Of a DNA stretch of 64,000 nucleotides, positions 13,199 through 14,164 are shown piece by piece. Positions within the stretch are counted from its first letter, which is position 1; each line of letters opens with the position of its first letter. Origin of the DNA: Candidatus Babelota bacterium (GTDB taxonomy: Bacteria > Babelota > Babeliae > Babelales > JAUPTZ01); contig JAUPTZ010000013.1 in assembly GCA_030917815.1 (NCBI GenBank), forward strand, positions 67,109-131,108. The letters run 5' to 3'. Made by a program: the position numbers and the translations under genes. Below the pieces are notes generated by a model. It had not been told where the DNA came from, searched no databases, and saw nothing but the letters and a program-made list of their open reading frames with translations.

Positions 13199-14164
13199 TT
13201 ACATACATTTTTTGATAAGCAACACCGATATAATAAGAGAATATATCACCGCCGTATCAATAATTGCCTGACAAAAAATAGCCAACCGCGCAACACCGGT
13301 CGCCTCCTCAGGCTCGCGAGCCATGCATACCACCGCTTGCGCAGCCGCTCTTCCTGAGCCAATAGCAGCACCGGCCGACCCGAAGCCAACCGCGCCCATA
13401 ACCCCGATGCACATCGCCACAAGCTCGACCGATGAAACACCGGCCTGAGGCTCCAAAAACATCATCATTAAACTTACCAGCAAGGAGAAAATAATCGGTG
13501 TCTCAATCATTGCCTGCACAATAAACGAAAATGAGAAAATACGGCTGTACAGCGAGATATTAAGACCTACCGCCTCGCTCACCGCACGGCAAAACATTGC
13601 CTGACCAATTGCTGGCCCAATAGTTCCGCACGCAAAGACTGCGCTCGCCCCCATCAACTGAATACTTTTGGCCAGCGATATCGTGGGAACCGCCCAGCCT
13701 TTTACCAAAAACGCAATGATAAACATGAAAACCATCGGCGCTTCAAGTAAGATCTGTGCAACCATCATCAAAGAAAGAATACGGGATGACTCATGAGGCT
13801 GACGAGCCATTGCCCCAATAGCAGCCGCCACCACTCTGCCCGACACCGCACCAACAACACCGGCTACCACACCCATGCTCAACGCCGCCACTCCAAGCGT
13901 CATTGCCACATTTGACGAAGTTACGGCATCGGCACTAAAAAGGTACATGAGCGTTATAATCAATGAAAAAACACAGCCACTTTCTAAGAAAGCACAGCCG
14001 ATCAAGAGCGCTTGCCGAATGGGAGACTGACCAATTACTTGCCGGGCCGACCCATCGGTTGCAACACCACCGGCGTACCCTTGCCCCAAGGCAACACCAC
14101 CAGCACCAACCACAATACAGAGTGCAACGCCAATAAAATAAATAAGCAACGCAATTAGTTCCAT
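13199..14164 (-). CDS. atpE: F-type ATP synthase/ATPase c subunit, four fused hairpins
   Basis: Four ~80-aa c-hairpins in one 321-aa ORF: GALGQGYAGG-like helix 1 / AFLES (E61), AVSGR../ILLEA (E141), GPAIGQ../AMIET (E221), AAIGSGR../AIIDT (D303). ARQP-type loops at residues 40 and 120, AREP at 282. Confidence 0.9.
   Translation of the reverse strand: MELIALLIYFIGVALCIVVGAGGVALGQGYAGGVATDGSARQVIGQSPIRQALLIGCAFLESGCVFSLIITLMYLFSADAVTSSNVAMTLGVAALSMGVVAGVVGAVSGRVVAAAIGAMARQPHESSRILSLMMVAQILLEAPMVFMFIIAFLVKGWAVPTISLAKSIQLMGASAVFACGTIGPAIGQAMFCRAVSEAVGLNISLYSRIFSFSFIVQAMIETPIIFSLLVSLMMMFLEPQAGVSSVELVAMCIGVMGAVGFGSAGAAIGSGRAAAQAVVCMAREPEEATGVARLAIFCQAIIDTAVIYSLIISVLLIKKCM

What the first reader, a model, noticed from the sequence alone, without database searches (positions are those of the whole stretch)
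13199..14164. Rotor c subunit built from four fused hairpins, all four carboxylates present, with alternating Gln/Ser ion-site residues
Seen directly: one 321-aa ORF contains four c-type hairpins. The ion-binding carboxylates sit at E61, E141, E221 and D303 (spacing 80, 80, 82). Aligning on the ARQP-type loop, the position equal to Gln32 of the Na+-binding Ilyobacter tartaricus c subunit is Q28, S109, Q188, S270, and the residue after the carboxylate is S, A, T, T. So hairpins 1 and 3 carry the Q...E(S/T) pattern linked to Na+ sites, while 2 and 4 carry an SGR...(E/D) pattern. Known fused rotor subunits include two-hairpin V-ATPase c and A. woodii c1 and multi-hairpin archaeal A-type subunits; I do not recall a four-hairpin bacterial F-type c with every carboxylate kept. 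Inference: two successive duplications (AB then AB-AB), a ring whose hairpin count is a multiple of 4 if homomeric, and possibly two chemically different sites in one ring.
Basis: partly seen in the sequence, partly recalled or inferred. Interest (0 to 1): 0.85.

Follow-up and report, generated by a model that had tools for sequence, protein, structure and literature searches.

The report
Four-hairpin ATP synthase rotor subunit
In bacteria of the phylum Dependentiae (parasites of protists), four copies of the small ATP-synthase rotor protein are fused into one, kept next to stator subunit a across the whole phylum beside a normal single rotor protein, so the rotor is probably a mixed ring; related fusions of two to six units turn out to sit in the ATP-synthase operons of other bacteria too.

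Summary
The 321-aa ORF (minus strand, 13199-14164) has four PF00137 hairpins with E61, E141, E221 and D303 all present. One detail is off by one: the Gln-equivalent of hairpin 2 is S108, not S109. It is not an assembly error: the gene occurs in 109 of 114 Dependentiae genomes, directly downstream of subunit a in 108 of 109, and AlphaFold gives eight confident helices (pLDDT 96.8).

It is probably not the whole rotor. Genomes have one a, one alpha, one beta and a separate normal c in a c-b-b-delta-alpha cluster. The closest solved relative is A. woodii c1, the two-hairpin part of a mixed F/V rotor. Outside the phylum, 16 sampled genomes carry long c genes of two to four hairpins; in 14 the order a, long c, normal c is intact. 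Database relatives reach six hairpins (Desulfobacterota among the named carriers). Most keep one or no carboxylate.

So this is a variant of the known hybrid rotor. Keeping all four carboxylates is a clade trait (29 of 109 Dependentiae); most have Gln in hairpin 2. The AB-AB duplication and the Gln/Ser alternation as a general rule are not supported. A mixed ring is the best reading but is not shown.

The parts
13199..14164 (-). four-hairpin F-type c subunit (c4), 321 aa
   Evidence: translation; PF00137 x4, E 2.8e-29; AF2 model pLDDT 96.8, eight TM helices
13925..14164 (-). hairpin 1 (residues 1-80), Q28 and E61 (codon 13982-13984)
   Evidence: carboxylate E/D in 109 of 109 genomes
13685..13924 (-). 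hairpin 2 (residues 81-160), S108 and E141 (codon 13742-13744); ARQP loop
   Evidence: E in 31, Q in 68, M/V/G in 10 of 109 genomes
13445..13684 (-). hairpin 3 (residues 161-240), Q188 and E221 (codon 13502-13504); loop of GxN type, no RQP
   Evidence: carboxylate E in 104 of 109
13202..13444 (-). hairpin 4 (residues 241-321), S270 and D303 (codon 13256-13258)
   Evidence: carboxylate D/E in 108 of 109
14155..15027 (-). F-type subunit a, the only PF00119 match in the genome; overlaps c4 by 10 bases
   Evidence: RLFGN arginine motif conserved across the phylum
15018..15296 (-). 92-aa three-TM protein just upstream of a; probably AtpI-like
   Evidence: no family match itself; small TM proteins at the same place in other genomes match PF03899 ATP-synt_I weakly (E 0.0016-0.013, below cut-off)

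Best explanation
The protein (c4) is a rotor subunit of the one F1Fo-ATPase of this cell. It most likely sits in a mixed ring together with the normal single-hairpin c encoded in the c-b-b-delta-alpha cluster, against the single subunit a encoded beside c4: a hybrid rotor of the Acetobacterium woodii kind with a four-hairpin instead of a two-hairpin long subunit. Each c4 adds a fixed block of four neighbouring rotor positions, with four ion-binding carboxylates here and three plus a dead Gln site in most of the phylum, so it tunes the number of ions moved per turn. In these host-dependent bacteria, which import host ATP, the enzyme probably runs mainly as an ATP-driven pump. Shown: the four hairpins, the carboxylates, the linkage to a, the single a, alpha and beta, and the co-existing normal c. 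Inferred: that both c types share one ring, the ring size, the ion and the direction.
For: One PF00119 gene per genome (108 of 114 genomes have it; two show an extra weak or partial match), directly next to c4 in 108 of 109. PF00006 finds three matches in this genome, read as one alpha, one beta and rho, and the same in most complete genomes checked. A normal c with E65 in 98 of 98 and Q32 in 91 of 98 lies in a separate cluster. Subunit a keeps the RLFGN arginine motif. Best PDB relative by sequence (E 5e-24) and by fold is 4BEM_J, A. woodii c1. Of 16 sampled genomes outside the phylum carrying a long c of 2-4 hairpins, 14 show a, long c and normal c in that order on one contig; the other two are cut by contig ends. 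A. woodii's ring holds the two c types at 9:1 (PMC8904574), and its operon layout is shared by C. aceticum (PMC7911925). Genomes lacking c1 (G061, G066, G068) also lack alpha, which fits lost contigs. Import of host ATP and reverse operation of the synthase were proposed for a member of the phylum (PMC6561590).
Against: No direct evidence places c4 and c1 in the same ring. In Dependentiae the two genes lie in separate clusters, unlike in A. woodii and the outside relatives. Some outside long c proteins have no carboxylate at all (G213 c4: G,Q,Q,Q), which a working ring tolerates only if the block can pass subunit a.
Confidence: 0.6

Rival explanations
1. Two alternative homomeric rings share a and F1: a ring of c4 only (2 or 3 copies, 8 or 12 hairpins) and a ring of c1 only, used under different conditions.
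For: c4 and c1 are in separate clusters in this phylum, so they could be expressed separately; c4 alone carries enough carboxylates (3-4 of 4) to work as a full ring.
Against: The outside relatives and A. woodii-type bacteria encode long c and normal c side by side in one operon (PMC7911925), and long c proteins with one or no carboxylate could hardly form a working ring alone.
Confidence: 0.25
2. c4 and a form a membrane complex outside F1Fo, such as an ion leak or a rotary unit without F1.
For: a and c4 are their own cluster, away from all F1 genes; G061 (94% complete) has a-c4 and gamma but no alpha, beta or c1 in the assembly.
Against: a is the only subunit a of the genome, so F1Fo needs it; G061 still has gamma, so missing contigs explain it better; a and c4 keep their functional residues.
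Confidence: 0.07
3. On origin: c4 arose by two successive doublings (AB, then AB-AB).
For: AU tests do not reject H1+H3 (0.467) or H2+H4 (0.208).
Against: Profile scores pair H3-H4 (104) over H1-H3 (62.6) and H2-H4 (63.2); the best tree pairs H2 with H3 at 98/99; the outside c4 of G213 matches hairpins 1-2-3-4 in order, which suggests a shared or stepwise history with outside long c genes.
Confidence: 0.1

Closest known systems
Acetobacterium woodii c1 (PDB 4BEM chain J) in the Na+ F/V-hybrid c ring
   Same: Long c-type subunit of an F-type enzyme, accompanied by a normal single-hairpin c; best PDB match by sequence and fold
   Different: Two hairpins with one carboxylate lost (PMC7911925) against four hairpins with four (here) or three carboxylates; genes in one operon there, split here; common ring shown there (9:1, PMC8904574), inferred here
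Multi-hairpin F-type c genes of other bacteria (L309-L325; P0139-P0258, named members from Desulfobacterota)
   Same: Two to six PF00137 hairpins in one ORF, F-type by NCBIfam; those with genomic context sit next to a and a normal c
   Different: Mostly one carboxylate (EQQQQ, EQQQQQ) or none; the best four-hairpin ones keep three (EEEQ, EQEE); none examined keeps all four
V-ATPase c (16 kDa) and E. hirae NtpK
   Same: Two fused hairpins; fold match TMt 0.72-0.83
   Different: c4 is far below the NCBIfam V-type K cut-offs and above the F-type one
Multi-hairpin archaeal A-type rotor subunits (e.g. Methanocaldococcus, Methanopyrus; from own knowledge)
   Same: Several fused hairpins, carboxylates retained in many
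   Different: A-type enzyme with a different stator; not compared here

Membership tests
F-type ATP synthase c subunit (PF00137, TIGR01260) | hairpin of two TM helices matching the family model | tested here: met
   four stretches, each over the PF00137 cut-off; TIGR01260 61.5 bits over 43.95; AF2 eight helices
F-type ATP synthase c subunit (PF00137, TIGR01260) | essential carboxylate in the second helix | tested here: met
   E61, E141, E221, D303; across 109 genomes H1 109, H2 31, H3 104, H4 108
F-type ATP synthase c subunit (PF00137, TIGR01260) | encoded with F-type subunit a | tested here: met
   PF00119 gene adjacent, 108 of 109 genomes
A. woodii-type hybrid rotor | long multi-hairpin c and normal single-hairpin c in the same F1Fo genome | tested here: met
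   own genome and nearly all of the phylum
A. woodii-type hybrid rotor | long c and normal c in one operon, after a | tested here: not met
   split between two places in Dependentiae; met in the outside relatives
A. woodii-type hybrid rotor | carboxylate lost in at least one hairpin of the long c | tested here: not met
   all four kept in this genome; hairpin 2 lacks it in 78 of 109 genomes
A. woodii-type hybrid rotor | both c types present in one ring | not testable with these tools
   needs the purified complex
V-type/A-type K subunit | over the NCBIfam V-type K cut-off | tested here: not met
   NF011483 38.2 bits against 188; NF005124 24 against 127
N-ATPase (alternate F1F0) c subunit, TIGR03322 | over the model cut-off | tested here: not met
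   73.1 bits against 130.85
Na+-coupled c subunit | Q32 / E65 / S-T66 (T67, Y70) site | tested here: inconclusive
   nearly complete in c1; in c4 only H1 and H3 have Gln and other ligand positions differ; no ion assay possible

The most novel reading that the evidence does not exclude
A phylum-wide ATPase rotor in which one four-hairpin polypeptide supplies a block of four chemically different ion sites inside an otherwise uniform ring, with one site switched off in one of the phylum's two clades; and, more widely, a class of bacterial F-type rotors carrying built-in inserts of two to six hairpins with few or no carboxylates, so that ions per ATP are set by which long subunit is inserted.
Probability: 0.45. 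Interest if true: 0.75.

Novelty: new variant of a known kind. Interest (0 to 1): 0.62.

Why it matters
Ions per ATP is set by the number of working sites in the c ring, and the A. woodii ring is the only solved hybrid ring I know of. Here a whole phylum keeps a four-hairpin long c with three or four working sites, and other bacteria carry long c proteins of two to six hairpins with nearly all sites dead. This gives a natural series in hairpin number and carboxylate number in which to test how a rotor copes with dead or unequal sites, and whether fewer sites go with enzymes that run as pumps. I found no paper in the searched library that describes three- to six-hairpin bacterial F-type c subunits or this feature of Dependentiae, but the key review of hybrid rotors (Brandt and Muller 2015) could not be read here.

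Tried and rejected
Assembly or frame error: rejected (independent genomes, single-contig genomes, one open frame). Uniqueness to this genome or phylum: rejected. V-type or N-ATPase identity: rejected. AB-AB duplication: not supported, not excluded. Two complete F1Fo enzymes in one cell: rejected (one a, one alpha, one beta). The first genome-contig scan with the single protein found nothing; A1 was too diverse for that scan, A2 worked. Matthies 2014 (PMC4228694) is not held. The names of the outside genomes G145-G375 could not be read; only named protein hits point to Desulfobacterota. The hairpin trees rest on 69 columns and leave the order of duplications open.

Full report
Observation. The ORF lies on the minus strand, 13199-14164, 321 aa. 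PF00137 matches it four times, each hairpin over the curated cut-off, and the whole protein scores E 2.8e-29. AlphaFold2 with a 54-sequence alignment gives mean pLDDT 96.8 and eight long helices.

Not an artefact. A search of 114 genomes of the same phylum finds the full-length gene, about 310-326 aa and in one open frame, in 109. The five without it are 53-78% complete. Named contigs identify the phylum as Dependentiae (Babelota, TM6), among them a complete genome. The four segments of the window gene share only 29-40% nucleotide identity, which excludes a collapsed or expanded recent tandem array. Against the same-genus relative the gene aligns without gaps at 76% amino-acid identity, dN 0.17 against a near-saturated dS of about 2.

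Context. Directly upstream, with a 10-base overlap, is F-type subunit a (PF00119 E 4.6e-34), the only one in the genome. Before it is a 92-aa three-TM protein. Small membrane proteins in the same position in other genomes match ATP-synt_I weakly, below cut-off, so an AtpI-like role is likely but not shown. Across the phylum subunit a is found in 108 of 114 genomes, single-copy apart from two with an extra weak or partial match, and adjacent to c4 in 108 of the 109 genomes with c4. The rest of the enzyme is elsewhere: a normal 81-aa c, two b-like genes, delta and alpha on contig C6, gamma on C3 far outside the window, and one further alpha/beta-type subunit, taken as beta, on C11. PF00006 finds three matches in this genome, of which the weakest is taken as rho. 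The normal c has its carboxylate in 98 of 98 sequences and the Q32 of Na+ sites in 91 of 98. Three genomes that lack c1 also lack alpha, which fits missing contigs; one of them, G061, lacks beta too but still has gamma.

What is conserved in c4. Hairpin 1 keeps E or D in 109 of 109, hairpin 3 E in 104, hairpin 4 D or E in 108. Hairpin 2 has E in 31, Q in 68, M in 7, V in 2 and G in 1; all four are kept in 29 genomes. A tree of c4 plus a, with that column left out, splits the phylum into two clades with full support: 31 genomes, 30 of them with E in hairpin 2 and all with Gln in hairpin 3; and 78 genomes, 77 without E in hairpin 2 and mostly with Leu in hairpin 3. The trait changed few times, and the window's genome lies in the smaller clade. 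In 19 genomes hairpin 1 has Glu at the Gln position, as in the two-carboxylate c ring of Fusobacterium nucleatum (PMC3692424); that is a resemblance only.

History of the hairpins. Profile comparisons do not pair H1 with H3 and H2 with H4 (62.6 and 63.2) but H3 with H4 (104.1), and H4 and H3 with the normal c (131.4 and 108.3). In a tree of 22 genomes each hairpin is close to its own lineage, H2 and H3 are sisters at 98/99, and AU tests reject neither H1+H3 nor H2+H4. With outside hairpins added the pairing is H3+H4 at 85/82. With 69 columns the order of events is open.

Relatives elsewhere. The best PDB match, by sequence profile (E 5e-24 over hairpins 3-4) and by fold, is 4BEM_J, the c1 subunit of A. 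woodii, the two-hairpin member of a hybrid F/V rotor. A search of 389 genomes, 275 of them outside the phylum, finds 16 outside genomes with clear long c genes. In 14 of these the order on one contig is a, long c of two, three or four hairpins, normal c, then b, delta and alpha where recognised; in G145 and G254 the contigs end at the long c. In G209 a three-hairpin gene and the normal c are in frame, separated by one stop codon. A protein search with these finds 2557 relatives. The best 120 are mostly five- and six-hairpin proteins of about 405 and 486 aa; named ones come from Desulfarculus, Desulfobacterales, Desulfococcus and other Deltaproteobacteria or Thermodesulfobacteriota. Their carboxylates are mostly lost: EQQQQ in 60, EQQQE or EQQQQE in 27, EQQQQQ in 26; five four-hairpin ones keep two or three. 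The sampled outside four-hairpin genes keep one (G294 ESQQ, G196 ESSQ) or none (G213 GQQQ). So long c proteins are widespread, and what stands out in Dependentiae is that carboxylates are kept.

How it probably works. One a, one F1, one long c encoded beside a and one normal c encoded beside b, delta and alpha fit a mixed ring. In A. woodii the two kinds of c occur at 9:1 in one ring (PMC8904574) with 10 Na+ sites (PMC7793690), and in C. aceticum, with the same operon layout, the lost carboxylate in c1 is taken to lower the Na+ to ATP ratio (PMC7911925). By analogy c4 would give four adjacent positions in the ring. If the ring had 11 hairpins, one c4 and seven c would fill it; this number is a guess. 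[quoted passage not shown] a rotor with fewer sites would suit a pump. The ion is undetermined: the normal c has a Na+-type site, the c4 sites are mixed.

Verdict. I file it as a new variant of the hybrid rotor known from A. woodii, with the sharing of one ring untested.

Noticed in passing
L309-L325; P0139-P0258: Long F-type c subunits of two to six hairpins, mostly with one or no carboxylate; those with context lie between a and a normal c in F1Fo operons of other bacteria (Desulfobacterota among the named ones).
   Followed up: partly
L310:3008-3997 (-): In G209 a three-hairpin c and the normal c are in one frame, separated by a single TAA; a possible fusion intermediate.
   Followed up: no
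G061 (genome search handle); c4 in L114: A 94% complete genome with a, c4 and gamma but no alpha, beta or normal c in the assembly; probably missing contigs, but F1 loss is not excluded.
   Followed up: partly
window 15018-15296: Small three-TM protein overlapping the start of subunit a; AtpI-like only by weak matches of proteins at the same place in other genomes.
   Followed up: partly
c4 position 28 in 19 of 109 Dependentiae genomes; single c genes in L309-L324: Glu replaces Gln in hairpin 1, giving a two-carboxylate site like that of Fusobacterium nucleatum; the single c subunits of the outside genomes have it too.
   Followed up: no
window 4206-6442: Two similar neighbouring genes that look like signal peptidase I (LepB-like), one with an N-terminal extension; judged by eye only.
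   Followed up: no
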